Positions 302-39,219 of a DNA stretch of 42,238 nt are shown in pieces. Origin of the DNA: Bacteroidales bacterium (GTDB lineage Bacteria > Bacteroidota > Bacteroidia > Bacteroidales > UBA932); contig JAGAAY010000022.1 of NCBI GenBank assembly GCA_017615065.1, positions 1-42,238 on the forward strand, given 5' to 3'. The notes below the pieces were generated by a model, which made no database searches, was not told where the DNA came from, and saw only the letters and a program-made list of their open reading frames with translations. The number at the start of each line of letters is the position of its first letter. The stretch's first letter is position 1. The translations under genes were made by a program, and so were the position numbers.

Positions 302-315
302 TATTTATATTGTTT

Positions 316-344
316 TTGTCATTTCGAGCGTAGTCGAGAAATCT
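316..344 (-). repeat. 28-bp palindromic repeat, family 3 copy A, in the rimP-nusA gap
   Basis: On the minus strand this reads AGATTTCTCGACTACGCTCG followed by AAATGACAA, directly after the rimP stop and 15 nt before the nusA start. A second copy with one mismatch lies at 39190-39218 directly before nadK, in the same orientation relative to the downstream gene. Elements of this general look (ATTTCGAGC...GAGAAATC) are, to my recollection, common REP-like intergenic repeats in Bacteroidota. It may affect translation of nusA by lying in its leader. Confidence 0.75.
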
Positions 345-3318: not shown

Positions 3319-4308
3319 TTACTCGGCCCCGCTCATCTTGAATTTTGCGTAAGCCCGCATATACTGCTTGATCGGCATGGAAGGCGATCCCAGCAGAACC
3401 TGTCCTTCCTTCTTGATATTGCCGATGATGCCGGCCTGAGCCCCAACCGTAGTATGGTCGGCAATTGTGATATGCCCGGCAATGCCGACCTGTCCGCCGA
3501 AGATGCAGTTCTTGCCGATGACGGTGGATCCCGCCACCCCGCACATGGCCGCCATGACCGTATTGTCGCCGATAATGACGTTGTGGGCGATATGGCAGAG
3601 ATTGTCCAGCTTCACGCCGTTGCCGATGACCGTGGATTCCATCTGCGCCTTGTCGATGGTGCAGTTCGCCCCAATTTCCACATTGTTGCCGATGACCACA
3701 TTCCCCAGATGCTCGATCTTCTCCCACGTGCCATCCTCCTTGGGAACATTCCCGAAGCCGTCCGAGCCGATGACGCATCCGGCGTGCAGAATCACGTTAT
3801 CGCCGATAATCATCCCCGGATAAATGCGTACGCCGGGATAGATAATGCATTTTTTGCCGATCTTGCAGTCGTCGCCGATATAAACGTTCTCGTAAATGAC
3901 GGTATCATCGCCGATGACGGTATGATGCCCCACAAACGAGAAGTCGCCGAGATAAACCCTCTTCCCGAACATTGTAGAGCAGAACCAGCGTGCCCTGAGA
4001 CTGCGGTGAGCGCGGGCCTTTTTCTTCATGCCGGCCACGTACTTGAGCAGTTCTGCCACGGCGGCATAGGCGTTGTCGACCCTCACCATTGTGGGCGTAA
4101 CGGACTCCCTGGGCTGGAAGTCCTTGTTCACAAGCAGGATGCTCGCCTTGCTGGTGTACACGTACTCCTCATACTTGGGATTGGCGAAGAAACTGATGCT
4201 TCCCGGTTTTCCGTGCTCGATCTTTGCGAATTTAACGGCAACCGCATTTTCGTCACCGTCCACGGTGCCGTGCAGTATCTGTGCGAGTTGTTTTGCGCTG
4301 AGTTCCAT
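3319..4308 (-). CDS. lpxD: UDP-3-O-(3-hydroxyacyl)glucosamine N-acyltransferase LpxD
   Basis: LpxD adds the second acyl chain to the lipid A precursor, acting after LpxC. The 329-aa protein has an N-terminal uridine-binding domain (residues ~1-100, with [21 protein letters not shown]), then hexapeptide repeats including [30 protein letters not shown] and the catalytic-His segment [19 protein letters not shown]-terminal [18 protein letters not shown] helix completes it. Length and domain order are normal. It starts one base after the tilS stop and probably shares its transcript. lpxC follows after 58 nt with its own promoter. Confidence 0.96.
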
Positions 4309-4309
4309 A

Positions 4310-5392
4310 TTATTCTTCTATGGGTTCTATTCTGTAAATCTTTGTTGTGGCGGGGCCTACCTTGACTTTTTTGTCGATGCAGTATCCGGCTATCGCCAGG
4401 ATATGGGATTCGTCTTCCGGATCACGGACCAGGGGGATGAGGTGCTTGACTTCCACCGGAATGTGATGATCGGTGAACCAGTCCTGCAGCTTTTTCTTCC
4501 CCGGCGCGCCCAGCGGCCTTATCCAGTCTCCCTCCTTCCAATAACTAAATACCGGCATCGCTCCAATCTTGCATGCATCCATAATCAAATATCCCGGCTC
4601 CTGTTTCACCTCGTTTGTTTTACACCAAGGTTCTTCAGTTATTGAGTACTCATTCCGAATCGGGTCGACCGGACTAAAACTTTTTCTACCGCAAGGGAGC
4701 GAAAAAGTTTTGTCCGGATCTCCCTGTGCTACATTATCCCTTACATTATCAAACTCCTCGGAGAAGCGGGCCATGTCGCGGTTCAGGGTGCGGACGAAGG
4801 ACGGGTTGATTTCCTTGAAAACGGGGAATACCAGATTGCGGATCTTGTTGCGTTTGTATCCGTTTTCGCAGTTGGTGCTGTCTTCGCGCCAGGGGAGTGA
4901 GTGCTCCACGGCGAACTCCGTGATTTCTTCACGTGTGAGGCCCAGCAGAGGGCGGCAGAGCGGGATATCGGCATACTCGGGAACGGGAAGGAAACCATCG
5001 GCCTTCATGCCGGTGATGCCTTTGGGGCCGGTGCCGCGGAGGAGGTTCAGGATCAGGGTTTCGGCGTTGTCCTGGGCGTTGTGGGCTACCAGTACGGCGT
5101 CATATCCGTGCTCTTTGCAAAGTTCCCCGAACCAGCGGTAACGCAGTTCCCTGGCCGCCATTTCTATGCTTATGCCTTTCTCATCGGCATAGGCGGCGGT
5201 TTCAAAGGCCTTTACATGAAGCAAAATGCCATGGCGTGAACAATAGTCCCGCACCATGGCTTCGTCCCGGTCGCTTTCTTCCCCGCGAAGACGGAAATTG
5301 CAGTGAGCGGCTGCAAAAGGCCCGCCAGCGAGGCGGACCTTTTCCAGAAGGCACATCGAATCGATGCCTCCGCTTACTGCCACCAGATCCAT
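4310..5392 (-). CDS. tilS: tRNA(Ile)-lysidine synthase TilS, with a shortened middle carrying a repeat-derived segment
   Basis: TilS converts C34 of tRNA-Ile(CAU) to lysidine using ATP and lysine. The PP-loop SGGIDS motif is at residues 7-12, followed by the N-type ATP pyrophosphatase domain ([40 protein letters not shown]). The C-terminal domain is recognisable from [24 protein letters not shown]. At 360 aa it is shorter than the common 430-470 aa. The missing part is between the domains, exactly where a strong DNA palindrome (4669-4717) encodes residues ~226-241. The gene begins at the stop of the DUF3078 gene (1-nt overlap) and is followed one base later by lpxD. Function is probably retained, as both conserved ends are intact. 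Confidence 0.93.
4669..4717. repeat. Palindromic repeat, family 2, inside the tilS reading frame
   Basis: The arms CCGGACTAAAACTTTTTC (4669-4686) and GAAAAAGTTTTGTCCGG (4701-4717) form a 17-bp stem with one bulged base and a 14-nt loop. The same half-sites occur after wbqC (863-910). Within tilS it is read in frame without a stop. Confidence 0.8.
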
Positions 5393-15031: not shown

Positions 15032-15916
15032 ATGAAAAAGACTGTACTGATTATGGCCGCCATTGCGGCTGTCATGTCCTGCAACGGGAAAAGATTCGTC
15101 GATGTCCAGGCACACCGCGGCGGAGCCGGGCTCATGCCTGAGAATACGATATCGGCAATGAAAAACGCCATCGACCTCAAGGTGAACACCCTGGAACTGG
15201 ACGTTCACGTGTCCCAGGACGGCAAGGTTGTGGTTTCTCACGACAGCTATTTCCATCCGCGCTATTCCACCCGACCGGACGGAACCCTTATCCAGAGCGG
15301 CGATCCCAAGGAATACCTTTATACGATGCCTTATGACAGCATCGTCAAGTACGATGTGGGACTCAGGCACGTGGAGCGCTGGCCGGACCAGGTGAAGGTG
15401 GCGGAGGTCAAGCCCCTGGTGGGAGACCTCATCGACTTTGCAGAGGCCTATGCGAAGGAAAAGGGCGTGAAGCCGATGCAGTACAATATTGAAATCAAGG
15501 TGCGTGAGGGAGAAGGAGAGGGGACTCTCTGGCCGGGCTACAAGGAGTTCTGCGACATCTGCATCCCCGTGCTGCTGGAAAAGAATCTGGGCAACAGGCT
15601 CATCGTCCAGTGCTTCGATGTCCGCGCCCTCGAGTACATGCATGAGAAATGGCCGGATCTTATCCTTTCATACCTCACCGATGACGACGAACCGGATATC
15701 GAGGAGATACTGGGCAACCTTAGCTTTACTCCTCAGTGGTGGAGCCCCCATTACAGCGTGGTAACCCCGGAGAATGTTAAATATTGCCACAAGCTTGGAA
15801 TCAAGGTTGTGCCGTGGACGGTTGACGAACCGGAGGATATGCAGCGCATGGTAGACTGCGGCGTTGAGGCCATCATCTCCAATTATCCCGACAGACTCAT
15901 TGAAGTAGTAAGATAA
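15032..15916 (+). CDS. Glycerophosphodiester phosphodiesterase lipoprotein
   Basis: Hydrolyses glycerophosphodiesters to glycerol-3-phosphate and an alcohol. The 294-aa protein has a lipobox (AVMSC, Cys17) and the GDPD fold: the HRGGAGLMPENT catalytic/metal motif, NTLELDVHVSQDGKVVVSHD (metal-binding Glu/Asp and second catalytic His), EIKVREGEGEGT and a C-terminal VVPWTVDEPEDMQRMVDCGVEAIISNYPD. The lipid anchor places it in the periplasm, so it can feed the transporter encoded next. The stop overlaps the GlpT start (TAATG). It follows its promoter at 14973-15003. Confidence 0.93.
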   Translation: MKKTVLIMAAIAAVMSCNGKRFVDVQAHRGGAGLMPENTISAMKNAIDLKVNTLELDVHVSQDGKVVVSHDSYFHPRYSTRPDGTLIQSGDPKEYLYTMPYDSIVKYDVGLRHVERWPDQVKVAEVKPLVGDLIDFAEAYAKEKGVKPMQYNIEIKVREGEGEGTLWPGYKEFCDICIPVLLEKNLGNRLIVQCFDVRALEYMHEKWPDLILSYLTDDDEPDIEEILGNLSFTPQWWSPHYSVVTPENVKYCHKLGIKVVPWTVDEPEDMQRMVDCGVEAIISNYPDRLIEVVR

Positions 15917-17301
15917 TGTTGAAGTTTTTGCAGCAGCCGGCGTATAAACCGGCTCAGACCGGCCCCGAGGCCGATGCCAGGTACAAGAGGATGCGCCTGC
16001 AGGTATTCCTTGGCGCATTCATAGGTTACGCGGGATTCTATCTGGTTCGAAAGAACCTGTCGATGGCGATTCCGGCCATGGCCCCGCTGGGCTTTGAAAA
16101 AACGGAGCTGGGATTCGTCCTGGGCCTTAACGCAGCCGCGTATGCGTTGTCAAAGTTTTTGATGGGCAGCGTGAGCGACCGATCCAACGCCAGGGTGTTC
16201 CTGCCGCTGGGACTGATTCTCACCGCCATCTCGATGTGCTTTATGATTGTGCCAATCCAGTTCATAGGGGCCGATCATAAGGCGCTGGCAATCCTTGTCA
16301 TGGGCGTGCTCAACTTCCTTGTGGGCTGGTTCAACGGTATGGGCTGGCCTCCTTGCGGACGTGTGATGACTCACTGGTTCTCCGTGAGCGAGCGCGGCAC
16401 CATGATGAGCATCTGGAACTGCGCCCACAATGTTGGCGGAGCTTTGGTGGGCCCTATGGCAACTTACGGTGCAATGTGGTTCGGCAGCTGGTTCTACGGA
16501 GCGCATACCGACATGTACTTCCTCATCGGCACATTTGCATTCCCGGCCGCCGTGGCGCTGTTCATCGCACTGCTGGCCTACGTGCTCCTGCGCGATACGC
16601 CCCAGTCCTGCGCACTGCCGTCAATCGAGGCCTGGCGCAACGACTATCCCAAGAACTATTCGGAGAAGCATGAGGAAACCCTTACGACCAAGGAGATTTT
16701 CTTCAAGTACGTTCTCAACAACAAGTTCCTGTGGTTCATCGCCCTGGCCAACGCCTTCGTGTACATGGTGCGTTACGGCTGTCTTGACTGGGCGCCTACG
16801 ATTCTCACCGAGAAAGGCATCGACCTCAAGAGCGCCGGCTGGGCCTACTTCGCCTATGAGTTCGCCGCCATCCCGGGTACGCTGCTCTGCGGCTGGCTCA
16901 GCGACAAACTCTTCCACGGCAAACGCGCCCTGCCCACTATGCTGTTCATGGCCCTGGTGATGGTGTTCGTGGTGCTGTACTGGCTGTTTATCGACAACCT
17001 CACAGTTGTGATTATCTGCCTCATCGGCATCGGCTTCTTCATCTACGGCCCCGTTATGCTAATCGGCGTGCAGGCCCTTGACCTTGCCCCCAAGAACGCA
17101 GCAGGAACCGCCGCCGGCCTTACCGGCTTCTTCGGCTATTTCCTGGGAACCTTCATCCTGGCCAACACCGTCATCGGCCTTGTAGCCCAGACGGCTGGCT
17201 GGAGCTGGACCTTCTTCATGCTCATCGGCGCCTGCCTCCTGTCCATCTTCTTCATGGGCCTCACCTACAAAGAAGAGCGCTCGCAGCTGAAAAAGCAATA
17301 A
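15916..17301 (+). CDS. glpT: GlpT-type organophosphate:phosphate antiporter (MFS)
   Basis: The 461-aa MFS protein has twelve predicted membrane helices and the OPA family pattern: RMRLQVFLGAFIGYAGFYLVRKNLSMA at the N-terminus (with the YLVRKN segment of the substrate-binding Arg), NGMGWPPCGRVMTHWFSVSERGTMMSIWNCAHNVGG and AAGTAAGLTGFFGYFLG. This is the signature of glycerol-3-phosphate or hexose-phosphate uptake. It begins at the stop of the glycerophosphodiesterase gene, which supports glycerol-3-phosphate as substrate. It is followed by a double-hairpin repeat (17315-17416) rather than a classic terminator. Confidence 0.92.
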   Translation: MLKFLQQPAYKPAQTGPEADARYKRMRLQVFLGAFIGYAGFYLVRKNLSMAIPAMAPLGFEKTELGFVLGLNAAAYALSKFLMGSVSDRSNARVFLPLGLILTAISMCFMIVPIQFIGADHKALAILVMGVLNFLVGWFNGMGWPPCGRVMTHWFSVSERGTMMSIWNCAHNVGGALVGPMATYGAMWFGSWFYGAHTDMYFLIGTFAFPAAVALFIALLAYVLLRDTPQSCALPSIEAWRNDYPKNYSEKHEETLTTKEIFFKYVLNNKFLWFIALANAFVYMVRYGCLDWAPTILTEKGIDLKSAGWAYFAYEFAAIPGTLLCGWLSDKLFHGKRALPTMLFMALVMVFVVLYWLFIDNLTVVIICLIGIGFFIYGPVMLIGVQALDLAPKNAAGTAAGLTGFFGYFLGTFILANTVIGLVAQTAGWSWTFFMLIGACLLSIFFMGLTYKEERSQLKKQ

Positions 17302-17314
17302 TATCGCGATTCGT

Positions 17315-17416
17315 TTTCCAGTCTCGGGATCAATTTCAGGCCGATTTTGATCCCGAGATTGCTTTTTTGCCGTTTCGGGATCATTTTGAGGGCTTTTTTG
17401 ATCCCGAGTACCGATT
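17315..17416 (-). repeat. Double-hairpin repeat, copy 1 (102 bp)
   Basis: Two successive hairpins with nearly the same stem: TCTCGGGATCAA/TTGATCCCGAGA (17322-17333 with 17347-17358) and TCGGGATCA/TGATCCCGA (17375-17383 with 17399-17407). Copy 3 (25778-25879) matches over 102 bp with two mismatches and no gaps; copy 2 (18571-18658) matches over 88 bp with three differences or so. Read in the gene direction it begins 2 nt after the HEPN stop codon. Because both stems are equivalent, the whole unit can also fold as one long hairpin. Confidence 0.9.
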
Positions 17417-17418
17417 CG

Positions 17419-17772
17419 TCAAAGTAGTTCTTCAATCTGTTTCTTCAATATTGGCACATCGATCAGAGCCGAATGCCAAAGAAGTTCCGGGAGTATGGTC
17501 GCATATCCGTGCACAAGGACATGCCGCATTTTGATGATATCGTCCCAGGGGATGGTGTTGTGCTTCTCTTTGAACTCTAAGGATAGCATGTATGCCGCTT
17601 CTCCGATAATCTCCACATTCTTAACAACTGCAAAATAACGCAGTTTATCAGAATACAATTCTTCTTCAGAAAGGCCCCTGGTGAAATCGGCAATGTGATT
17701 CGAAGCTGTGATAATATCATTCAGCCGTCCGGGGTCGCGTTCAGGCTCTCTCATAGACAAGCACTTTTTCAC
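17419..17772 (-). CDS. HepT-type HEPN (DUF86) toxin
   Basis: The family is the RNase or tRNA-targeting toxin partner of MntA nucleotidyltransferase antitoxins. The 117-aa product has the HEPN helical bundle and the complete RX4HXY motif: Arg83, His88, Tyr90 in RHVLVHGY; the Tyr is the residue AMPylated by MntA in studied systems. The segment NVEIIGEAAYMLS before it is also typical. An alternative start at Met7 (17754) is plausible. The gene overlaps the end of the upstream nucleotidyltransferase gene (17741), so the pair is coupled. It ends 2 nt before the double-hairpin repeat. Confidence 0.9.
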   Translation of the reverse strand: MKKCLSMREPERDPGRLNDIITASNHIADFTRGLSEEELYSDKLRYFAVVKNVEIIGEAAYMLSLEFKEKHNTIPWDDIIKMRHVLVHGYATILPELLWHSALIDVPILKKQIEELL

Positions 17773-18511
17773 GGTTGATGCTTTCCTTGGCGAAAGGCTT
17801 TATGGAACCGCTGGCAACAAGATCGACCTTCCTCCCCAGCAGTTTTTCGAGGCTATTGATCATTCCCGCGTACTGCAAAAGGCCGATGGAGGATGATTTA
17901 TCCAGGTCGACAAGAATGTCGATATCGCTGTCAGGTTTTTCTTCCATTCTGGAGAATGAGCCGAACAGCCATGCCCGTTCGACAGGCTTTCTTACAAAGA
18001 AGTCCTGGATTGTATGAACTATCGTTACCCTCTCCTGATTGATTCGAAGCAGATGCTTGCTGATTTCTTCTTTTCTTCCCTTGCGGGCCGCGTATCTCAG
18101 AAGGCGTGATTTGTTTACGGAATACAACTCAAAGGCCCTTTGGAATTCTTTCTGAATATCTGAATCCGTCAGTGTTGCGTATTCCCTGTCCGCTTCATGA
18201 TCGACAAGTGTCTTCTCCAATTCTGGAACGGAGACACCCTGCTGAATACGTAAGGGAGATTCTGAGATAATAGGTTTAACCAAAATAAAGTCGTGCAAAT
18301 CCTCCACCATCTGATAGGCGTTCTTGATCAGGGCAACATCTTGAAACTTTTTCTTCAATGCTGCTCTGACCGATTCGCACATACTCTTGGGAACCTCCAC
18401 TACCAAATTCTTGGGCATTGCCGTAACGCAGTGGTCCATCCCTACGAATTCATCAAACAAAAGGTCCTCCACGGCCATCATCTTCGGTGATATGATACTT
18501 TTGTACTTCAT
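17741..18511 (-). CDS. MntA-type nucleotidyltransferase antitoxin with an AbiEi/DUF6577-like N-terminal domain
   Basis: 256 aa from the ATG at 18511-18509. The C-terminal domain (~160-256) is a minimal nucleotidyltransferase: GSFSRMEEKPDSDIDILVD gives Gly184-Ser185 and Asp196/Asp198, with a third acidic residue at Asp230 (KVDLV). Residues 1-~155 are extra and resemble the C-terminal part of AbiEi/DUF6577 proteins (IISESPLRIQ, then GVSVPELEKTLVDHEADRE); that assignment is from memory and is the less certain part. A TTG start at 18541 would lie inside the promoter and operator palindrome and is rejected. Partner is the HEPN gene downstream. Standalone MntA proteins are ~100-140 aa, so this is a fusion form. 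Confidence 0.8.
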   Translation of the reverse strand: MKYKSIISPKMMAVEDLLFDEFVGMDHCVTAMPKNLVVEVPKSMCESVRAALKKKFQDVALIKNAYQMVEDLHDFILVKPIISESPLRIQQGVSVPELEKTLVDHEADREYATLTDSDIQKEFQRAFELYSVNKSRLLRYAARKGRKEEISKHLLRINQERVTIVHTIQDFFVRKPVERAWLFGSFSRMEEKPDSDIDILVDLDKSSSIGLLQYAGMINSLEKLLGRKVDLVASGSIKPFAKESINREKVLVYERA

Positions 18512-18519
18512 CTCGGATG

Positions 18520-18550
18520 CAAACATACAAAAATTTGGCAATATTTCAAA
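18520..18550 (-). promoter_or_regulatory. Promoter of the nucleotidyltransferase-HEPN module
   Basis: Minus strand TTTG (18550-18547), 19-nt spacer, TATGTTTG (18527-18520). Only eight bases separate the box from the ATG, so the transcript should be leaderless or nearly so. Confidence 0.75.
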
Positions 18551-18563
18551 AAAATTGCCAAAT
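18533..18563. promoter_or_regulatory. Palindrome over the toxin-antitoxin promoter (likely operator)
   Basis: ATTTGGCAAT (18533-18542) and ATTGCCAAAT (18554-18563) are perfect inverted repeats with an 11-nt spacer, covering the TTTG box and most of the promoter spacer. That position fits autorepression. The likely binder is the antitoxin or the complex; this is an inference. Confidence 0.6.
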
Positions 18564-18570
18564 GAAAGAA

Positions 18571-18658
18571 TCTCGGGATCATTTTCAGGCCGATTTTGAT
18601 CCCGAGATTGCTATTTTGCCATTTCGGGATCATTTTGAGGGCTTTTTTGATCCCGAGA
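18571..18658 (-). repeat. Double-hairpin repeat, copy 2 (88 bp)
   Basis: Same two-hairpin unit as copy 1, in direct orientation to it. Together copies 1 and 2 bracket the nucleotidyltransferase-HEPN module. Read in the gene direction it starts about 20 nt after the TfoX-like stop codon; the extra bases contain CTCGGGGATCCC, which looks like a decayed additional half-unit. Confidence 0.88.
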
Positions 18659-18678
18659 TGAAAGGGATCCCCGAGGTA

Positions 18679-19218
18679 TTACCGCATGTCTTTCTTACGG
18701 GACACCAGGCGGGGGTAGGCGTCAACGGCATCGGCAAAGGTTAAGCCGGCGTTCTCACGCAACCAGCTTTGAAATTCCACTTTGAAACGGAAGCCCTTGC
18801 CCAGGTGCTGCTCAAAGAAAGCCCGCAGGTCCTGGGAGCATACGATGTTGGGGGCGATGGCCTCATCCAGTGAGGTTGGGACCTGGCGGTTCACCGCACT
18901 TCTTTTTGCCTTTGACCTGGACGTCATCAGTTCCGGCAGCGTTGCACGGATGATGTCCTCAAGGTAATCCCTGTCATCGACATTCGTTATATAGAAATGG
19001 TCCCTGGCGCTGGGATAAGGTGGCCGGAGCACGACTTCGTCAAGAACGGCCTCGCCGGCATCAGTCTGCTTTATATATAAGTTATTGTCGCATATCAGGC
19101 CGAACAGGACACCATCGCAATAGATGCAATAGTCTCCCATCATCTTTTTCACGGCAATCTCACCGGCGCCGGAGCACTGGTCCACGATATATTGAACAAA
19201 ATCTGAGTTACAAGCCAT
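18679..19218 (-). CDS. TfoX N-terminal domain protein with a DUF6434-like C-terminus
   Basis: The 179-aa protein has a TfoX_N fold in residues ~1-105 (AVKKMMGDYCIYCDGVLFGLICDNNLYIKQT, then PPYPSARDHFYI), found in the competence regulator TfoX/Sxy but here standing alone. Residues ~120-175 (LRAFFEQHLGKGFRFKVEFQSWLRENAGLTFADAVDAY) look like a DUF6434 domain. No enzymatic motif is visible. A ribosome site AGGAGAA precedes the start. It sits 15 nt after the tandem-GNAT gene and ends before repeat copy 2. Role unknown; the pair resembles small accessory modules rather than core genome. Confidence 0.72.
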   Translation of the reverse strand: MACNSDFVQYIVDQCSGAGEIAVKKMMGDYCIYCDGVLFGLICDNNLYIKQTDAGEAVLDEVVLRPPYPSARDHFYITNVDDRDYLEDIIRATLPELMTSRSKAKRSAVNRQVPTSLDEAIAPNIVCSQDLRAFFEQHLGKGFRFKVEFQSWLRENAGLTFADAVDAYPRLVSRKKDMR

Positions 19219-19233
19219 AATTCTCCTGTTCGT

Positions 19234-20229
19234 TTAACGCCTCATCATCTGATATGCAAACCTCTCGTCTCCGGAGGCAAGATAAATGATACCGCAGTAC
19301 TTGAAGCCATATTTCAAGATGTTGTGCTGCATAATTAAGTTATCGCGGTGGGTGTCTATACGTATGTTCCCGTCTTGGGAGAAACACCAGTCCATAATTG
19401 AATTGAACACGCCGTGCACTTCCGGATAGCTGCCGATACGGTGAACCACATGATACTGGAGCGAGTCATCCAACCACATTCCATCATAAATAGCCGCGTA
19501 CGTTGGTTCAGGAGACGGGATAAAGGCAAAGTACCCTACAATCCTCTCTCCCTGCAGGACCACGAATCCGTGGCCGCTTTCTAAGTCTTTTTGGATAACC
19601 TCCTTCGAGGGATAGCCATTCACCCACTGGCCTGTGTTCCCTGACGCCCGCATTATACCTTTGGCCGCTTCCAAAACATCCATTATTGCATCAGTTTGCC
19701 CAGTATTTGCAGCCTTGACACTCAACAGGTTCAGTCTAAGGACCCTGATCGGAGTATCCTTACCTTGTTCAAGATCCACAACAGTCTCTCCGGTGGGAAC
19801 GAATCCGCACTTTTCCATCACCCGGCCGGAAGCCGGATTGTCGATGAAATGGCCGCTGATAAGCGACTTGATTTCCGTGGTTTGGCGGATACGGTCAATC
19901 ATCATCCGTAGCGCCTCTGTGCAGATTCCCTGGTTCCAATAGGGGCGGCCTACCCAGTAGCCGATGAGGGGTTCGCCTTCGCGTGCGGGCAGGTTGCAGC
20001 TGCAGGATGGACCATAACCCATGGCACCGATTGGCTCTCCCGTCTCCTTGAGCACGATGGCCCAGGTACATGTTGCGTCGTTGAAGACAGTCCGGATAAT
20101 CTCCAGACTCTCCTCTACGCTTTTATGCGGCGGCCATCCGGCCCGGGGGCCGACCTCCGGGTCTGATGCGTATTTGAACAGTGCCGGGGCATCCGTTTCA
20201 AGCCAGGGGCGCAATATAATCCTATCCAT
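19234..20229 (-). CDS. Tandem GNAT-family acetyltransferase (two domains)
   Basis: 331 aa from the ATG at 20229-20227; the GTG at 20235 overlaps the -7 box. Residues ~1-170 form a RimJ-like GNAT domain (RIILRPWLETDAPALFKYASDPEVGP at the start, then IGYWVGRPYWNQGICTEALRMMIDRI and NPASGRVMEKCGFVPTGE). Residues ~175-331 form a second, diverged GNAT domain (GFVVLQGERIVGYFAFIPSPEPTYAAI; IRIDTHRDNLIMQHNILKYGFKYCGIIY). The substrates are unknown. It is read from a TACCTTTG box (20235-20242) only 5 nt from its ATG. The TfoX-like gene follows in the same operon. Confidence 0.85.
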   Translation of the reverse strand: MDRIILRPWLETDAPALFKYASDPEVGPRAGWPPHKSVEESLEIIRTVFNDATCTWAIVLKETGEPIGAMGYGPSCSCNLPAREGEPLIGYWVGRPYWNQGICTEALRMMIDRIRQTTEIKSLISGHFIDNPASGRVMEKCGFVPTGETVVDLEQGKDTPIRVLRLNLLSVKAANTGQTDAIMDVLEAAKGIMRASGNTGQWVNGYPSKEVIQKDLESGHGFVVLQGERIVGYFAFIPSPEPTYAAIYDGMWLDDSLQYHVVHRIGSYPEVHGVFNSIMDWCFSQDGNIRIDTHRDNLIMQHNILKYGFKYCGIIYLASGDERFAYQMMRR

Positions 20230-20234
20230 CTTCA

Positions 20235-20242
20235 CAAAGGTA
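20235..20242 (-). promoter_or_regulatory. -7 box of the tandem-GNAT gene
   Basis: TACCTTTG on the minus strand, 5 nt before the ATG and directly after the U-tract of the sppA terminator. No good TTTG is found 19 nt upstream. A leaderless transcript is implied. Confidence 0.5.
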
Positions 20243-20243
20243 C

Positions 20244-20274
20244 AAAAAAAGCCGGAAAATCTTTCGACTTTCCG
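20244..20274 (-). terminator. Terminator behind sppA and the tRNA remnant
   Basis: Stem CGGAAAGTC/GATTTTCCG (one mismatch) followed by GCTTTTTTTG on the minus strand. Its shape and position copy the terminator behind the intact initiator tRNA at 24075-24108. Confidence 0.75.
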
Positions 20275-20275
20275 A

Positions 20276-20306
20276 CTGTAGTAGCGGGGGCAGGACTCGA
20301 ACCTGC
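20276..20306 (-). pseudogene. 3' remnant of an initiator tRNA gene
   Basis: These 31 bp on the minus strand equal positions 49 onward of the intact initiator tRNA (24046-24076) with a single difference, which here restores the T-stem pair 49-65. The 5' part of the tRNA is absent. It begins 3 nt after the sppA stop codon. It is inverted relative to the intact gene. Such 3' fragments are classic scars of integration at a tRNA gene or of a rearrangement break. Confidence 0.8.
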
Positions 20307-20309
20307 CGG

Positions 20310-22076
20310 TTAGCGTATCTCGATATCGTACGGCATCCTGGCGTAGACTTCGGTGGGACGGTCCTCGTTCAGGGAGGTGAGGATGTCGGTCATGCCTTCC
20401 AGGGGGGTGCCGGTGAGGATGGTGGGGGTATTGTCCTTGTTGAGGGACATCATCAGCTGCTCCATAACGCCAAGAGGGGCGGGGCTGGTTTTGATCCTGT
20501 ACTGGGAAGGATCTTCGAATCCGGCCAGGGAGGCGGCGTAGACGACGGCGTCGGAGAGGGTGCCGATTTCATCCACAATGCCGATGCCGATGGCGTCGGC
20601 GCCGGTCCAGACGCGGCCCTGGGCGATGGCATCGACCTGCTCCACTGTCATGTTGCGGTTCTCGGCCACCATGTTCACGAAGCGTTCATAGATGTCTTCC
20701 ACGCTTGCCTGCAGGAAGGCGAGCTCGGTGGCGTCGAACGGACGGTTGAGGGCGTACATATCGCTGTGGGCGTTGGAGGCCACACTAACGAAGTTCACTC
20801 CCACTTTGCGCATGGTCTTGGAGAATTCCGGAATCATGCTGAATACGCCGATGGAGCCGGTGAGCGTGCTGGCGTTGGTGTAGATCTTACGGCAGCCGTT
20901 GGAGATCCAGTATCCGCCCGATGCGGCATAGTTGCCGTATGATGCCACAACCGGTTTTTCCTCGTTCAGGAGCGTCAGGGCGTCCTTGATCTTTTCGGAG
21001 GCGATGACGCTGCCGCCGGGAGAGTTCACGCGAAGGACCACGGCCTTCACGCTCTTGTCCTCACGGAGCTTGTCGATTTCCTGCACGAAGCGGTCTGCGG
21101 CGATCTTGTCGTATTCTTTACCATCCACTATGCTGCCATCGGCAAAGAAGATTGCCACATTGTTCTTGCCGGGGATATTTGTTGCCTTGAGCTCTGCATA
21201 TTTGCTGAATGCGACCAGGTGGAGATCCTTTTTGTCGGACACCATGGCCTGCTCGCAAAGCTTGGCGATGAGTTCTTCCCTGCTCATGAGTCCATCGGCA
21301 AGGCCGCACTCCACGAAGTCTTCCGGGAGGTTGAGCCGGAGGTTGTCGACTATATCGTTGAGCTGGTCCAACGTGATGCCGCGGGACTTGGCGATTGCGC
21401 CGCCCATCACTTTCCACATCGACTCTATCATCACCCTGTTCTGCTCCATATTCTCGGCGGAGGGGGTGTTCTTGATGAACATCTCACCGGCCGATTTATA
21501 TTTTCCGTGACGGATGAGCTGTACGTTGACGCCCAGTTTATCCAGTATGTCCTTTACGAACATCATGTTGCCGGCAAGGCCGATGACGGTGGAATTGCCG
21601 CCATGGAACGATGTGATATAGACTTTATCGGCCACAGATGCCAGATAATATGATGCGGTGGAAGGATTCTCAGTATATGCTATGACGGGTTTGCCGCTGG
21701 TGCGGAATTCCTCCAGCGCCGCACGGAATTCTTCCATGGTGGCGTTGCCTGCCGCGACTCCGTCGGCACGCAGGAAGATGAACTTCACGGCCGGGTCTTC
21801 AGCGGCAGCCTCAATCGCCTTCACGGCATCCCAGATGCCAACCGTTGCCCTGGTGTCCATGTTTCCGGAGGCGAAGGACGGCATTTGGTCGGTGGTCTGC
21901 TCGGCCAGTGTAAAATCGGCCATATTGATATCCAGGACGGCGTCGCGGGGCATTACGGTCTTGGATGAGCCGATGGCCATAGACCCTGCGATAAATAGGA
22001 AAAACAGGAAGCCGAGGATGTTCATCACCACGATTGCGGCGATAACGGCCAGCATGGTTCTTACGAATTCTTTCAT
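20310..22076 (-). CDS. sppA: Signal peptide peptidase SppA, 67K type
   Basis: SppA is a membrane-bound Ser/Lys protease that degrades leftover signal peptides. The 588-aa length matches the long two-domain type. There is one N-terminal membrane helix (~8-35). The catalytic Lys is Lys194 in [10 protein letters not shown] and the catalytic Ser is Ser386 in [12 protein letters not shown]. Residues [17 protein letters not shown] precede the latter as usual. It is divergent from hisS with overlapping promoter boxes. The gene ends 3 nt before the tRNA remnant at 20276-20306. Confidence 0.95.
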
Positions 22077-22083
22077 TGTTTTA

Positions 22084-22115
22084 TTTGTTTACGCTCACAA
22101 ATATAAGTATCTTTG
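22084..22115 (+). promoter_or_regulatory. Promoter of hisS
   Basis: TTTG (22084-22087), 20-nt spacer, TATCTTTG (22108-22115). The start codon is 19 nt downstream. Confidence 0.7.
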
Positions 22116-22118
22116 TGA
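22095..22118. promoter_or_regulatory. Back-to-back -7 boxes of sppA and hisS within a palindrome
   Basis: The minus-strand TATATTTG (22105-22098, sppA) and plus-strand TATCTTTG (22108-22115, hisS) are two bases apart and lie within TCACAAA-N10-TTTGTGA. The two promoters probably compete for polymerase. Confidence 0.55.
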
Positions 22119-22134
22119 GATTAAAAAAGATTGC

Positions 22135-23475
22135 ATGGCACAGAAACCTTCAATTCCCAAGGGCACGCGCGACTTCGGCCAGGAGGAAATGGCGCGGAGA
22201 AATTATATATTCGACACCATCCGTTCGGTATTCCGCACTTTCGGGTACAGCGAGATTGAAACTCCGGCCATGGAGAACCTTTCCACCCTGCTGGGCAAGT
22301 ATGGCGATGAGGGGGACAAACTCCTCTTCCGTATCCAGAACAGCGGCGAGAAAGCGGAGCTGCCCCCGGAGAAAGGCCTCAGGTACGATCTCACCGTGCC
22401 TTTCGCCCGCTATGTCGTGCAGCATCAGAACGAGATTTCATTCCCGTTCAAGCGTTTCCAGATCCAGCCCGTCTGGAGGGCCGACCGTCCGCAGAAGGGC
22501 CGCTACCGCGAGTTTTACCAGTGCGACGTTGATGTTGTGGGATCCACATCACTCTTAAACGAACTGGAGTTGGTGCAGATTGTGGACCGGGTGTTCACTC
22601 TGCTCGGAATCCGCGTGGCGGTAAAAATCAACAACCGCAAGGTTCTCACCGGCTTTGCGGAGATTGCCGGTGCGCCGGACAAGGTGGTTGACATCACCGT
22701 GGCCATCGACAAACTGGATAAGATCGGTCTGGAAAGCGTAGAAGCTGAAATGCGCGAAAAGGGCATTCCGGAGAGCGGAATCGAGGTTATCCGCCAGATT
22801 CTTGCGCTGTCCGGCAGCACGGAGGAGAAGATCGCCCGTATGAAGGAGATGTTCGATGGTGGCAGCGCATCAGGCGTAAAGTCGGAAATCGGCCTTGCCG
22901 GTCTGGCGGAGCTGGAGGAAACCTTCGGGCTCATAGGCACAGCCGGCATTTCCCAGCCTGTGGAACTGGACCTTTCGCTGGCCAGGGGGCTGAATTATTA
23001 CACCGGCGCAATCTTCGAAGTAAAGGCTCTGGACTGGCCCATCGGCAGCATCTGCGGTGGTGGCCGATACGATAATCTCACCGGCATTTTCGGCCTTCCG
23101 GGCCTCTCCGGCGTGGGTATTTCCTTCGGGGCCGACCGCATCTACGATGTCCTCACCGGCCTGGAAAAATTCCCTGCCGGGCTTGGCTCAGCCACAACTC
23201 TGCTCTTCGCGGTGATGGGTGCCGATGAAATGCGCTACGTTATCCCAATCGCCCGGGAGCTGCGTGGCAAGGGCGTATCCGTCGAGATTTATCCGGAGCC
23301 CTGCAAGCTCAAGAAACAGTTCGATTATGCCGACAGGAAAGCGATTCCGTTCATTTCCATAAACGGAACGGACGAAATCGCTTCAAACACCGTGAATGTA
23401 AAGAATCTGCTCAGCGGGCAGCAGAAGGCTTTCCCTGCCGCCGACCTGGACGCTATTCTTGCTTTTTTGGCTTAG
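22135..23475 (+). CDS. hisS: Histidyl-tRNA synthetase
   Basis: Charges tRNA-His. 446 aa from the ATG at 22135 ([19 protein letters not shown]); longer readings upstream run through sppA antisense and the promoter. Class II motifs: motif 2 region [29 protein letters not shown], the HisA-type [15 protein letters not shown] and the histidine-binding GGGRYDNL, then motif 3 [15 protein letters not shown]. The C-terminal anticodon-binding domain spans ~345-446. It overlaps the convergent gtrA gene by 23 nt. The tRNA-His gene itself is at 30982. Confidence 0.97.
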
Positions 23476-23896
23476 CTTCCCTGTTATCCACTTTCTTTCC
23501 GTACACCACCAGTCTCTGGAAGGTGTACTCCGTGATGAGGTTGAAGAAGAGGTTGAGGATGGTTACGAGATACTCGTTCCAGCCCAGAGTTTCCGCCAGA
23601 TAATCTCCGCCCCACGTACTCACGGGGGTGAATACGGCATAGTATCCGGCAATCTTCAGCATCGCTATGGGCACGTTCACCGTACTCTTGAAAGTGAAGC
23701 GGCGGTTGATAAAGAAGTTCCAGATAATGGAGAGTATCAGGGCTATCAGGTAGCACGGCCAGTAACGCCATGTAGTAAGTTCATTGAGCAGGGTGAACGT
23801 AATGAACTCGATGGCACCGGCACTTGCCGATATAAGTGAGTACTTTATGGCTCTCCAGACTTCGCCGTCCCAGAAGCTTTTCTTACTTTCAGACAT
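23453..23896 (-). CDS. GtrA-family membrane protein
   Basis: GtrA proteins are small membrane proteins linked to transfer of lipid-linked sugars to surface polysaccharides. The 147-aa product has four predicted helices: [49 protein letters not shown] (the conserved NFxxxRxxTF block), [16 protein letters not shown] and [19 protein letters not shown]. The C-terminus is lysine-rich. No glycosyltransferase lies next to it, which makes its sugar unpredictable. Its 3' end overlaps hisS by 23 nt. The initiator tRNA promoter lies behind its start. Confidence 0.88.
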
Positions 23897-23955
23897 TGTC
23901 AGGTTCAGGTTAACGGGCGCAAAGTTACTCTTTTTTCGGCAAAACGGTACAAAAA

Positions 23956-23986
23956 TTTGCTATTTCCAAAAATATGCGTACCTTTG
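23956..23986 (+). promoter_or_regulatory. Promoter of the initiator tRNA
   Basis: TTTG (23956-23959), 19-nt spacer, TACCTTTG (23979-23986); exact consensus, 12 nt before the tRNA. Confidence 0.85.
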
Positions 23987-23997
23987 CACTCCCATAC

Positions 23998-24070
<73 letters not shown>

Positions 24071-24074
24071 CTAC

Positions 24075-24108
24075 AGAGGAAAAATCGAGAGGTTTTTCCT
24101 CTTTTTTT
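24075..24108 (+). terminator. Terminator of the initiator tRNA
   Basis: Stem AGAGGAAAAA (24075-24084) with TTTTTCCTCT (24093-24102), 8-nt loop, then TTTTTT. Confidence 0.88.
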
Positions 24109-24110
24109 AT

Positions 24111-24118
24111 TACCTTTG
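24111..24118 (+). promoter_or_regulatory. -7 box of the DUF5674 gene pair
   Basis: TACCTTTG immediately behind the U-tract of the tRNA terminator and 15 nt before the ATG. The same terminator-then-box arrangement occurs behind the tRNA remnant at 20235-20274. Confidence 0.5.
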
Positions 24119-24133
24119 CAAAAACGCATTATC

Positions 24134-24475
24134 ATGCAGATTCTACATAAATCAATAACACGGGCCGAGCTTGCGGCTTTGGCGGAGAACACCTTCGGTG
24201 ACATGATAAAGTGTGTCGCTGATGTAAAGCTGGGGTTACTGGCCCTTGACGCCGAACTGCATGCCGATTTGGAGCGGTTGTTACTGGAAAATGGTTCTGC
24301 AGAAGAGAACTTATGGGGATTCAACCTGTATCCGGAAGAGGAAGGCGAGGATTTTATCGAGTATGATTCCTTAATCAATATCCGTTCTTGGCAGAATAAT
24401 CCCTCTCGAGATGTGTTGGCCCCGGATGTCCGGGAAGCCATCAAACAGATTGTCGAACAGTTCATTATCGGATAG
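24134..24475 (+). CDS. DUF5674 family protein
   Basis: 113 aa from the ATG at 24134 (MQILHKSITRAELAALAENTFG); an upstream TTG at 24116 would overlap the promoter box. Family features: the helix DMIKCVADVKLGLLALDAELHADLERLLLENGS, then ENLWGFNLYPEEEGEDFIEYDSLINIR and a C-terminal EAIKQIVEQFI. No function has been assigned to the family. The next gene begins in the base after its stop codon, so the two are coupled. Confidence 0.82.
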   Translation: MQILHKSITRAELAALAENTFGDMIKCVADVKLGLLALDAELHADLERLLLENGSAEENLWGFNLYPEEEGEDFIEYDSLINIRSWQNNPSRDVLAPDVREAIKQIVEQFIIG

Positions 24476-24808
24476 ATGCAGCACACTTCCCTGGAAAACG
24501 GCCGATGGGCAGAGATGTCTTTCCCGCAGCAGATGGCCAACATCGGCAGCGAGACATCTCGTGTACTGAAGGCTCTCCATGCAGGCAAGGATTCCAGGGC
24601 GGAAGGGGCTTTTGCACGGGCTCTGGAACTGATTGACTTAACCATCAAGTACGGAAGATCTGGAAGCAGTCTGGTTGCCAGGAGCGCCATGTGGGAAGAA
24701 CTCTGCAGATTCAGGGAATTATTCTGCGCCTCCTTCCTGTCACGCAATCTTGCCGATCTGGCTCTCCTGAACAAGTACCTGGATCGATTTGCATACATCC
24801 TGAATTAG
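24476..24808 (+). CDS. Conserved small protein paired with DUF5674 (HEPN-like helices, unassigned)
   Basis: 110 aa starting MQHTSLENGRWAEMSFPQQMANIG, then SETSRVLKALH, a helix FARALELIDLTIKYG and a C-terminal EELCRFRELFCASFLSRNLADLALLNKYLDRFAYI. I recognise the pattern LENGRW..MSFxEQMANIGSE..R as a conserved uncharacterised family but cannot name a function. The predicted structure is all-helical. The start codon abuts the DUF5674 stop codon (TAGATG). A two-gene helical pair next to a tRNA could be a toxin-antitoxin or other defence unit, but no catalytic motif supports it. Confidence 0.65.
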   Translation: MQHTSLENGRWAEMSFPQQMANIGSETSRVLKALHAGKDSRAEGAFARALELIDLTIKYGRSGSSLVARSAMWEELCRFRELFCASFLSRNLADLALLNKYLDRFAYILN

Positions 24809-24895
24809 TTCAGAGCATTATCTTCAACACGTTGTGCGAATCCATCCAACCTCAGAAGGTCTTCAAAAAAGGATGTTTTAGATTCTTTTGGTATT

Positions 24896-25777
24896 ATGAA
24901 TATCCGATTGGAACAGCCCAAGGACTGGCGGGAGGTGGAGAACCTCACGCGGGAGGCATTCTGGAACGTTTATCGGCCCGGATGCCAGGAGCATTTTGTG
25001 CTCAATCAGTATAGAAACAATCCGGCTTTCATCCCGGAGTTGGACTTTGTGATGGAGGATGGCGGCCGCATTATCGGCCACGTGATGTTCTCCAAGGCAG
25101 AAATCAAGCTGGCCGACGGCACGGCCTTCCCTTCATGGACATTCGGCCCCATCAGCATACATCCGGACTATAAGCGCAAGGGCTACGGGCTCAAGTTGTT
25201 GCAATATGCGCTGGAAAAGGCCCGGGAGATGGGCGTGGGTCTGCTGCAGATGGAAGGGAACATCGAATTTTACAAGCTCGCGGGCTTTGACCTGGCCAGC
25301 AAACTGCGGATTCATTACCACAGCGAACCGGCCGATGCCGAAGTGCCGTATTTCCTTGCCCAGGAACTGATTCCCGGCTATTGGGGAGAGCGCGAGGGAA
25401 CCTATTGCCCGCCTGCCGGCTACTTTGTGGCCGATGCGCAGCCGGAAGCCTTTGCAGCATATGAGGCCTGTTTCCCGCCCAAGGAGAAACACCTGGTCCC
25501 CGGTCAGCTTCCCCAGTTCTGCCAGAGCTGCGGCATGCCCCTTACCAAAGACGAAGACTGCGGCCACAATGCCGACGGCAGCATCAACTTCGACTACTGC
25601 CAGTATTGTTACCAGGACGGCAAGTTCCTGCAGGAGTGCACCATGGATGAGATGATCGACCACTGCGCCCAGTTCGTGGACGAAGTGAACAAGATGATGC
25701 CCGAACCCATGACCGCCGAGCAGTACAAACAGATGATGCGCGGCTTTTTCCCGATGCTCAAACGCTGGAGAAAATAA
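24896..25777 (+). CDS. GNAT acetyltransferase fused to a zinc-ribbon (Zn_ribbon_2-like) domain
   Basis: 293 aa. Residues 1-~170 are a GNAT domain with the acetyl-CoA loop in SIHPDYKRKGYGLKLLQYALEKAREMG and the following FYKLAGFDLASK. Residues ~205-293 hold a cysteine-rich ribbon: FCQSCGMPLTKDEDCG and YCQYCYQDGKF (four or more Cys placed for zinc), then helices ending MMRGFFPMLKRWRK, matching the putative zinc-ribbon family PF12674. The C-terminal part is often encoded alone. The stop codon (25775-25777) is followed without a gap by double-hairpin repeat copy 3. Substrate unknown. Confidence 0.85.
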   Translation: MNIRLEQPKDWREVENLTREAFWNVYRPGCQEHFVLNQYRNNPAFIPELDFVMEDGGRIIGHVMFSKAEIKLADGTAFPSWTFGPISIHPDYKRKGYGLKLLQYALEKAREMGVGLLQMEGNIEFYKLAGFDLASKLRIHYHSEPADAEVPYFLAQELIPGYWGEREGTYCPPAGYFVADAQPEAFAAYEACFPPKEKHLVPGQLPQFCQSCGMPLTKDEDCGHNADGSINFDYCQYCYQDGKFLQECTMDEMIDHCAQFVDEVNKMMPEPMTAEQYKQMMRGFFPMLKRWRK

Positions 25778-25879
25778 AATCGGTACTCGGGATCAAAAAA
25801 GCCCTCAAAATGATCCCGAAACGGCAAAATAGCAATCTCGGGATCAAAATCGGCCTGAAATTGATCCCGAGATTGGAAA
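25778..25879 (+). repeat. Double-hairpin repeat, copy 3 (102 bp, inverted relative to copies 1 and 2)
   Basis: Matches copy 1 (17315-17416, reverse complement) over 102 bp with two mismatches. It starts on the base after the GNAT-zinc ribbon stop codon. It lies between convergent genes, with the serpin stop 17 nt beyond. As the gene is on the plus strand here, the element keeps the same polarity to its upstream gene as in copies 1 and 2. Confidence 0.9.
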
Positions 25880-25896
25880 CTCAGTCTCGAAACCAC

Positions 25897-27111
25897 TTAT
25901 TTGTTGCAGAACTTGCCGGCGAAGAGGATGGCGCCGGTGCTGGATTCGGTTATGAGGTAGAGGAAGGGATGGTCGGCGTGGAAGGTGAATTCGGGACCGC
26001 CGGCAGCCATTTTGCCGAAGGCGGCGACTGATACCGCGGCGGCTTCGGTGCCTTCTTCATCGACCTTGATTATGGCGTCCTGCTGAACGAAGTACAGGTA
26101 CAGGGGAATGCTGGACAGAGCGGAGAAATCGGCATTCGCCGGGCTGAAGGCGCTGGGCATTCCCATGGCGGAGAGGATGTCATTTAGCTTGATGTGATAC
26201 TTGGTTTCGAAGCGGGGGAACCAGAGGTCCACCTTGGGGTAGAACATATTGGAGCGGAAGTCCTGCCATGAGGTTTTCTTAAGGAAGTCGATGACATCGG
26301 CAACTTTGTATCCCGTTCTGGGAAGGACGGCGATCATGGAGTATGCGCCGTTGCCGTAAGGCATGCTGACGGCCTGGAAGACATCGTTTTCCGTGTACGC
26401 GAAGGTCTTGTCGGACATTTTCATCATCTTCACCTTTGATGCGTTGCCGGCTTCATCGGTAAAGGTCTCTTCGGAAGTGGATTTCTTGGAGAACTGGTTT
26501 TTCCACACGCCCTTGAAGTACAGGGCGTTCATAAGGTATACGGGGATATCCGTGGAGATATCGTCCAGAACCGAGGGAATCATCTTGTTTGTGTTCCTGG
26601 AAGCCCAGCCGTTGATGGTCTTGAGTGCATCGGCGCTTTTGGAGAAGTCCAGGTTGGCGATTTCCGCCTTGTAGTACTTGCTCACGTTTGTCTTGTAGGA
26701 GTCCAGCACGGGGAAGCCCTTATCGGCAAACAGGGCATTGGCGATGTTCAGCTTGGTCTTTTTGTCCAGGTTGGGGAGTTGCTCGAGCATTGAAAGGCTG
26801 TATTTGTCCACATCGGCCTTCTCGCCGGCGCCGTATCCGAGGACGGTGCATATTTCATCGGCAGTCTGCGTCTGGGCGCCGTCCAGCACCATTCCAAGCA
26901 GGAACTGCATGCTGAGAGGGGAGATTATGTAATTGACCTTGGTGGATTCATCTATCCTGTCGATGAATTCGAAAGCGAAGGAATTGCCCTTCTGAACGTA
27001 TTCGGCCGATTTGGTCGTGAGGTCCAGGGCCTTGTAGGGATTGGTCTTTTCACTGTCGATCTTGTCGCATGCGACGACCAGCGCGAGAGCTAAAATAAGA
27101 ATGTGTTTCAT
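25897..27111 (-). CDS. Serpin-family protease inhibitor lipoprotein
   Basis: 404 aa, lipobox VVAC (Cys15), so the inhibitor should be displayed on the envelope. The serpin fold spans ~40-404: YIISPLSMQFLLGMVLDGAQTQTADEI, LMNALYFKGVWKNQF, MPYGNGAYSMIAVLPRTG and the C-terminal HADHPFLYLITESSTGAILFAGK. The hinge DEEGTEAAAVSVA is of inhibitory type (small residues at P15-P9). Counting 15 residues from the hinge Gly puts Met at P1 and Ala at P1', the same register as alpha-1-antitrypsin, which predicts elastase-like targets. In gut bacteria such inhibitors may counter host or competitor proteases; that is an inference. Confidence 0.93.
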   Translation of the reverse strand: MKHILILALALVVACDKIDSEKTNPYKALDLTTKSAEYVQKGNSFAFEFIDRIDESTKVNYIISPLSMQFLLGMVLDGAQTQTADEICTVLGYGAGEKADVDKYSLSMLEQLPNLDKKTKLNIANALFADKGFPVLDSYKTNVSKYYKAEIANLDFSKSADALKTINGWASRNTNKMIPSVLDDISTDIPVYLMNALYFKGVWKNQFSKKSTSEETFTDEAGNASKVKMMKMSDKTFAYTENDVFQAVSMPYGNGAYSMIAVLPRTGYKVADVIDFLKKTSWQDFRSNMFYPKVDLWFPRFETKYHIKLNDILSAMGMPSAFSPANADFSALSSIPLYLYFVQQDAIIKVDEEGTEAAAVSVAAFGKMAAGGPEFTFHADHPFLYLITESSTGAILFAGKFCNK

Positions 27112-39175: not shown

Positions 39176-39189
39176 AAGCCCGTTTTAAA

Positions 39190-39218
39190 AGATTTCTCGA
39201 CTTCGCTCGAAATGACAA
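39190..39218 (+). repeat. 28-bp palindromic repeat, family 3 copy B, in the nadK leader
   Basis: AGATTTCTCGACTTCGCTCG followed by AAATGACAA, one mismatch from copy A (316-344). It ends 1 nt before the nadK ATG and has the same orientation to its gene as copy A has to nusA. Confidence 0.78.
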
Positions 39219-39219
39219 A

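What the first reader, a model, noticed from the sequence alone, without database searches (positions are those of the whole stretch)
17315..25879. Three near-identical double-hairpin repeats, each placed directly behind a stop codon in the same polarity
Seen directly: copies at 17315-17416, 18571-18658 and 25778-25879. Copies 1 and 3 share 102 bp with two mismatches and no gap. In the direction of the upstream gene each begins 2 nt (HEPN), ~20 nt (TfoX-like) and 0 nt (GNAT-zinc ribbon) after the stop codon, and all have the same orientation to that gene. Each unit has two hairpins with nearly equal GGGATC stems, so it can fold as two hairpins or one long cruciform. There is no U-tract, so these are not ordinary terminators. 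They follow accessory genes only. Tight stop-codon boundaries are what cassette recombination sites or 3' REP elements look like. A fixed 3' element shared by unrelated accessory genes is not something I can match to a named family.
Basis: seen in the sequence. Interest (0 to 1): 0.78.

Follow-up and report, generated by a model that had tools for sequence, protein, structure and literature searches.

The report
Mobile hairpin arrays beside their transposase
The three repeats are short arrays of a mobile DNA hairpin scattered through this gut bacterium's genome, and the same arrays flank a gene for a single-strand DNA transposase that probably spreads them, so they are a new variant of a known kind of selfish repeat rather than cassette or gene-end signals.

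Summary
The copies are two-unit arrays of a 51-nt hairpin repeat. The genome (MAG, 68% complete) holds 22 arrays with 58 units, every step 51 nt. They also follow core genes (recR 1 nt, dnaE 1 nt, purA 23 nt), with mixed polarity (7 same, 4 opposite). Two arrays flank a divergent REP-associated tyrosine transposase (RAYT) in the same genome, C67:3973-4965; the downstream array starts 2 nt behind its stop. Relatives of this RAYT occur in 143 of 200 genomes of the genus (own included) and in none of 196 genomes outside it. In 22 of the 30 loci returned, a flank carries a tandem array of period 50-52 nt or its double, against 4 of 155 control windows, while stems differ. Closeness to stop codons is a described REP trait (PMC3733652, passages). 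Verdict: REP-type repeats of a genus-restricted RAYT group, unusual in lacking GTAG, in their core, and in near-constant spacing. New variant of a known kind.

The parts
17323..17408 (+). Array 1: two 35-nt hairpins (17323-17357, 17374-17408) with a 16-nt spacer, 51-nt step; 17315-17416 is the stretch shared with array 3
18572..18657 (+). Array 2: two hairpins (18572-18606, 18623-18657), 51-nt step
25786..25871 (-). Array 3: two hairpins (25786-25820, 25837-25871), 51-nt step, inverted relative to array 1
15916..17301 (+). MFS transporter; stop 21 nt from array 1 (convergent partner)
   Evidence: PF07690
17419..17772 (-). HepT-like HEPN protein; stop 10 nt from the nearest hairpin of array 1
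   Evidence: PF01934
17741..18541 (-). DUF6577 + nucleotidyltransferase; its start side faces array 2
18679..19218 (-). TfoX_N + DUF6434 protein; stop 21 nt from array 2
24896..25777 (+). GNAT + zinc-ribbon protein; stop 8 nt from the nearest hairpin of array 3
25897..27111 (-). Serpin; stop 25 nt from array 3 (convergent partner)
   Evidence: PF00079

Best explanation
The elements are a REP-type mobile repeat: arrays of a 51-nt hairpin unit belonging to a REP-associated tyrosine transposase (RAYT, an HUH-Y1 single-strand DNA nuclease). Shown: multicopy arrays with an exact 51-nt step; a RAYT gene with HUH and Tyr motifs flanked on both sides by the same arrays in the same genome; relatives of that RAYT in other species flanked by arrays of nearly the same period with their own stems. 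Inferred: the RAYT binds the hairpin on single-stranded DNA, cuts at unit boundaries, and moves or copies units of one hairpin plus spacer to new sites. Arrays survive where they do least harm, mostly just behind a stop codon. Any effect on mRNA 3' ends is secondary.
For: 58 units in 22 arrays, every array fitting a 51-nt step. RAYT at C67:3973-4965, found with a congener RAYT at E 1.9e-12; arrays 97 nt upstream of the mechanical ORF start and 2 nt behind its stop. NHxH and Tyr invariant in 30 of 30 loci. 23 of 28 relatives match NCBIfam REP_Tyr_transpos at E 0.01 or better (the own protein at 17.6 bits against a cut-off of 80). Profile match to other RAYTs: probability 100%, E 3e-59. Flank tandem arrays in 22 of the 30 loci returned; all 34 flanks over threshold have best period 50-52, 102 or 104; control 4 of 155 windows (periods 66, 41, 66, 51). 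Core motif at 14 bits or more in 12 of 32 flanks of 16 NH[LIV]H RAYTs, 0 of 32 flanks of 17 other Y1 genes, 2 of 130 control windows. A second RAYT in the genome (C4) has its own repeat family with the same core.
Against: No excision, copying or insertion was seen directly. 8 of 30 RAYT loci show no tandem flank over threshold. The C67 protein itself has no Pfam hit at E 0.1 or better. No GTAG guide (GTRG near 3 of 58 units in sense, 1 of 58 antisense). Within-genome stem covariation is not above shuffles. In congener G061, which has the nearest hairpin sequences, 2 of 3 two-unit sites have units in opposite best-scoring orientation, so head-to-tail order is not universal. Control windows came from loci of genomes chosen because they had hairpin hits.
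Confidence: 0.88

Rival explanations
1. The arrays are gene-end elements (bidirectional terminators or mRNA 3' stabilisers) kept by selection for that function; mobility is old history.
For: 11 of 22 arrays lie 25 nt or less from a stop codon; in 13 arrays with both neighbours known, placement is nearer to stops than uniform, p about 0.02-0.03; strong hairpins.
Against: No U-tract behind the hairpins (sequence). Congener G185 keeps the same gene pair with a different palindrome in the gap. Some arrays sit on the start side of the neighbour seen (C21, C24, C51, C67:3790, C86). REPs elsewhere show the same closeness to stops (PMC3733652, passages).
Confidence: 0.2
2. Cassette recombination sites (attC-like) that travel with the preceding accessory gene.
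For: Tight boundaries behind stop codons of three accessory genes in one 8.5-kb stretch.
Against: recR, dnaE, purA, rpoC and a GT2 gene neighbour such arrays. Polarity mixed 7:4. Gene pair conserved without the array in G185. Tandem units with fixed step, and a RAYT flanked by them. An integrase was not searched for.
Confidence: 0.02
3. Non-autonomous palindromes moved by some other enzyme; the RAYT flanks are only insertions near that gene.
For: Activity of the RAYT is untested; other Y1 genes exist in the genome.
Against: Arrays of matching period flank the RAYT in 22 of 30 loci of different genomes with different stems, and upstream and downstream flanks of one RAYT share a 10-mer in 21 of 30 loci against 214 of 870 unmatched pairs.
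Confidence: 0.08

Closest known systems
REP / REPIN elements with RAYT (TnpA_REP), 'REPtron' (PMC6006769 and PMC8266576 in passages, PMC3733652 in parts 1-2 of 8 and passages)
   Same: Short intergenic palindromes in many copies, close to gene 3' ends, each family tied to a RAYT gene flanked by the same palindromes. PMC3733652 also notes that large REP clusters often repeat singletons or dimers in tandem with flanking DNA.
   Different: No GTAG guide; conserved AT-rich/GGCC core; [quoted passage not shown]
TnpA_REP subclass 2.6 / RAYT group 5 (PMC6006769, passages)
   Same: Bacteroidetes, no GT[AG]G, 'atypical secondary structures' flanking the gene; the NH[LIV]H RAYTs of this genus (e.g. L125, L152) fit its HUH motif.
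   Different: The C67 protein has NHFH and YVIRN instead of NH[LIV]H and YIH[QN]NP, and is not seen by PF01797.
CGTC-tagged REPs (PMC3733652, parts 1-2)
   Same: Short palindromes, also reported in Bacteroidetes; CGTC is part of the commonest stem here.
   Different: There CGTC is an unpaired end tag with 4-5-nt loops and no known transposase; here GGCGTC is paired, the loop is 15 nt and a RAYT is present.

Membership tests
REP repeat with RAYT (REPtron) | Dispersed, mostly intergenic 20-40-nt palindromes in many copies | tested here: met
   58 hairpin units of 35 nt in 22 arrays
REP repeat with RAYT (REPtron) | RAYT gene flanked by the same palindromes | tested here: met
   C67:3973-4965, arrays 3790-3875 and 4968-5206
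REP repeat with RAYT (REPtron) | RAYT with HUH and catalytic Tyr | tested here: met
   N65-H66-x-H68 and Y122 in 30 of 30 loci; profile match to other RAYTs; cleavage itself not testable here
Canonical GTAG REP | 5' GTAG (GTRG) tetranucleotide at the hairpin foot | tested here: not met
   GTRG within 6 nt in 3 of 58 units sense, 1 of 58 antisense
REPIN | Two REPs in inverted orientation | tested here: not met
   In the own genome the best-scoring orientation is the same within each array, though a few units are nearly symmetric (e.g. C99:13296, 32.1 against 31.4 bits); in congener G061 2 of 3 two-unit sites are inverted
TnpA_REP subclass 2.6 / group 5 | NH[LIV]H and YIH[QN]NP motifs | tested here: not met
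   C67: NHFH, YVIRN; motifs quoted from PMC6006769
CGTC REP | Unpaired terminal CGTC, loop 4-5 nt | tested here: not met
   Loop 15 nt, GGCGTC inside the stem
Intrinsic terminator | GC stem followed by U-tract | tested here: not met
   Read from the sequence of the three copies; the scan cannot see loops over 8 nt
Rfam families | Match to any Rfam 15 model at gathering score | tested here: not met
   Only two tRNAs in the four sources searched
attC / integron cassette | Site travels with its gene | tested here: not met
   Gene pair without the array in G185; core-gene neighbours
attC / integron cassette | Integron integrase present | not tested
   No search was made

The most novel reading that the evidence does not exclude
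A RAYT group confined to one Bacteroidales genus reads its repeats by a conserved AT-GGCC-AT core and a fixed spacing of about 51 nt, while the stem acts as a fast-changing identity tag that co-evolves with each RAYT. Arrays grow by copying single-stranded circles of one hairpin plus spacer. The RAYT loci of G000 and G185, both behind the same dnaE start (64% identical proteins) but with different stems, would be a natural record of such switching.
Probability: 0.3. Interest if true: 0.65.

Novelty: new variant of a known kind. Interest (0 to 1): 0.42.

Why it matters
RAYTs are domesticated single-strand transposases whose benefit to the cell and rule of repeat recognition remain open. This genus offers many RAYT-array pairs (relatives in 143 of 200 genomes sampled, own included) with a similar core and spacing but different stems, including one pair of loci at the same chromosomal place, so which part of the repeat is read, and how arrays grow, becomes directly testable. 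PF01797 matched only 14 of 28 of these RAYTs, weakly, so surveys that rely on it will undercount them.

Tried and rejected
Cassette-site and accessory-gene reading: rejected on core-gene context, mixed polarity and the G185 gap. Terminator: no U-tract in the sequence; the scan could not test 15-nt loops. Known RNA family: none in four sources. The first RAYT search (PF01797) in the own genome found four Y1 genes with no window-type hairpin in the flanks fetched and would have suggested an orphan repeat; a protein search with a congener RAYT then found C67, C4 and C42 as well. R1 against 34 PF01797 RAYT loci gave nothing below E 0.15, because stems differ. Hairpin counting alone is a weaker discriminator: two or more hairpins downstream in 17 of 30 loci against 16 of 155 control windows. 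Stem covariation within the genome is not above shuffles. Contig L103 (83% identical at sppA-hisS) has no array behind its serpin, but the region is rearranged, with a different neighbour, so it is not a clean empty site. Searches of solved structures gave weak hits only: A2 best E 0.12, shared by a hypothetical transposase and VPS4B; A3 best E 0.0047, a hypothetical transposase. No structure prediction was made, because the tool's list of admitted sources does not name genome-search loci.

Rows dropped: L166 and L180 left out of A2 (28 of 30), one frame being short and one over-long; L112 left out of the flank test because no frame was found, and two flanks under 200 nt were skipped there (64 of 66 flanks of 33 genes used). 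The print was cut, so loci around L172-L174 were seen only through. Control windows come from loci L061-L085, which were fetched for hairpin hits. The 30 RAYT loci are those the tool returned as best, not a random draw.
Full report
OBSERVATION. The window is the whole of contig C82 of a 1.70-Mb, 114-contig metagenome-assembled genome, 68% complete. The three copies exist as described. Each is two 35-nt hairpins 51 nt apart. The stem pattern occurs 6 times, shuffle mean 0.00. The 102-mer folds far better than shuffles.

GENOME-WIDE. A covariance model of the 35-nt hairpin (36 units) was run on the own genome. With the register checked by script there are 58 units in 22 arrays: twelve arrays of two units, five of three, two of four, two of five and one single unit at a contig end. 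Every array fits a 51-nt step. One unit (C51:4778) is in register but weak (E 0.0026), and a few units score almost as well on the other strand. The commonest stem is GGCGTC/GACGCC (32 of 58 units with the inner five pairs matched). The fully matched GGGATC/GATCCC form occurs in six units, which are the six of the window; mixed-stem units occur elsewhere. Seven of 22 arrays lie within 200 nt of a contig end, so the true number is probably higher.

CONTEXT. Eleven of 22 arrays lie 25 nt or less from a stop codon. Neighbours by Pfam: recR (1 nt) and GT2 (3 nt) on the two sides of one array, GtrA (1), dnaE (1), the RAYT (2; no Pfam hit), a HTH protein (4), a VWA/YfbK protein (6) with rpoC at 82 on the other side, CotH (8), purA (23), an A2M protein (47), and in the window GNAT-zinc ribbon (8), HepT (10), TfoX (21), MFS (21) and serpin (25). 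Others lie on the start side of the neighbour seen (porin, LOG-type, LMWPc, Mfa-like, and the dnaE/RAYT gap). In 13 arrays with both neighbours known, one of them the RAYT's own, placement is nearer to stops than uniform (Fisher p 0.032, Monte Carlo p 0.022). Polarity to the nearest stop is 7 same and 4 opposite, read (p 0.55). So 'accessory genes only' and 'one polarity' fail. In G185 the GT2-recR gap (genes 79-82% identical) has no such array but a different palindrome, which resembles a flank of that genome's Y1 gene L120. The gene pair is therefore independent of the element.

THE TRANSPOSASE. PF01797 found four Y1 genes in the genome, none with a window-type hairpin in the flanks fetched. 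A protein search with a congener RAYT found three more: C4, C42 and C67. C4:2674-3531 is followed by its own repeat; copies of that repeat are in 13 of the 15 stretches searched, the C4 flank included, the stretches having been picked from weak model hits. C67:3973-4965 is flanked by window-type arrays: two units upstream, and five units starting 2 nt behind its stop. Both repeat families share a CATTTT-GGCC-TTTTTG core.

OTHER GENOMES. The hairpin model at E 0.01 or better hits 16 of 200 genomes of the genus, the own one included; by eye many of the weaker hits have other stems around a similar core, and some are chance. G061 has the nearest sequences; 2 of its 3 two-unit sites are inverted rather than head-to-tail, a result against strict polarity.

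THE RAYT FAMILY. Relatives of the C67 protein at E 1e-15 or better are in 143 of 200 genomes of the genus, own included. A profile of 28 of them, run on 198 genomes of the order, hits the own genome and one congener and none of the other 196 at that threshold; the 20 of those listed are one from the same family and 19 from other families. In 30 RAYT loci the HUH and Tyr residues are invariant. PF01797 matches 14 of 28 weakly, NCBIfam REP_Tyr_transpos 23 of 28, and the profile matches other RAYTs of the genus with probability 100%. In 22 of 30 loci a flank holds a tandem array at 65% identity or more; all 34 such flanks have best period 50, 51, 52, 102 or 104, against 4 of 155 control windows with periods 66, 41, 66 and 51. 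Eight loci do not pass. Stems differ, read by eye, around an AT-rich/GCC-rich/AT-rich centre. The closest relative, G185:C140 (64% identical), lies behind the same dnaE start but with a GGTAGC stem. In G141 five dispersed relatives of its RAYT array were found besides the RAYT flanks; by eye two lie about 10 nt behind a stop codon (L221, L222) and one about 12 nt from a facing stop (L223); the other two were not placed.

MECHANISM. Shown: sequence, spacing, association with the RAYT, distribution. Inferred: single-strand cleavage and copying of units by the RAYT, by analogy with TnpA_REP and IS200/IS605 (PMC6006769 and PMC8266576, passages). The near-constant period could reflect what the enzyme measures or simply descent from one ancestral array; the data do not separate these.

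LITERATURE. PMC3733652 (parts 1-2 of 8 and passages) reports that REPs lie mainly between convergent and unidirectional genes, convergent ones in two species mostly less than 20 bp from both 3' ends; that head-to-tail dimers are absent or rare in most genomes; and that large clusters do repeat units in tandem. So the stop-codon closeness is a known REP trait, and tandem clusters as such are not new. PMC6006769 (passages) reports 'atypical secondary structures' for Bacteroidetes subclass 2.6, without the sequence pattern in the passages I saw. Seven searches of the held library (in some only the top 15 of many were listed) showed no paper on about-51-nt RAYT arrays in Bacteroidales; nothing outside that library was searched.

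TAXON. One related contig is titled 'Bacteroidales bacterium isolate Tb.RUG.440'. That the genus may be Cryptobacteroides is recalled, not tested.

CHANGES AT CHECKING. 

Noticed in passing
window 17419-18541: HepT-like HEPN gene overlapping a DUF6577-nucleotidyltransferase gene: looks like an MNT/HEPN toxin-antitoxin pair with an extra N-terminal domain.
   Followed up: partly
window 20244-20306 and 24046-24108: 63-nt inverted repeat pair, 84% complementary; not compared with the hairpin arrays.
   Followed up: no
window 306-351 and 39183-39228: 46-nt inverted pair, 87% complementary, with a TTTCGAGCG/GTCGAGAAAT type palindrome, another repeat kind.
   Followed up: no
L092 ~2747, L093 ~2501, L102 ~2512: Copies of the second repeat family (that of the C4 RAYT) lie 49 nt from a 51-nt array at three sites, suggesting one composite element that has been copied.
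   Followed up: partly
L085 (G061:C73:3754-3788): A related hairpin lies inside what reads by eye as an open carbamate-kinase-like frame, next to another short repeat; possibly an in-frame palindrome insertion.
   Followed up: no
L103 against window 20310-27078: In a congener contig sppA is followed directly by the serpin; in the window accessory genes and rearrangement separate them.
   Followed up: partly
L027 (G011:C41 near 5143): A run of about eight hairpin units, by eye about 51 nt apart, with GGGATC stems and a different spacer.
   Followed up: no
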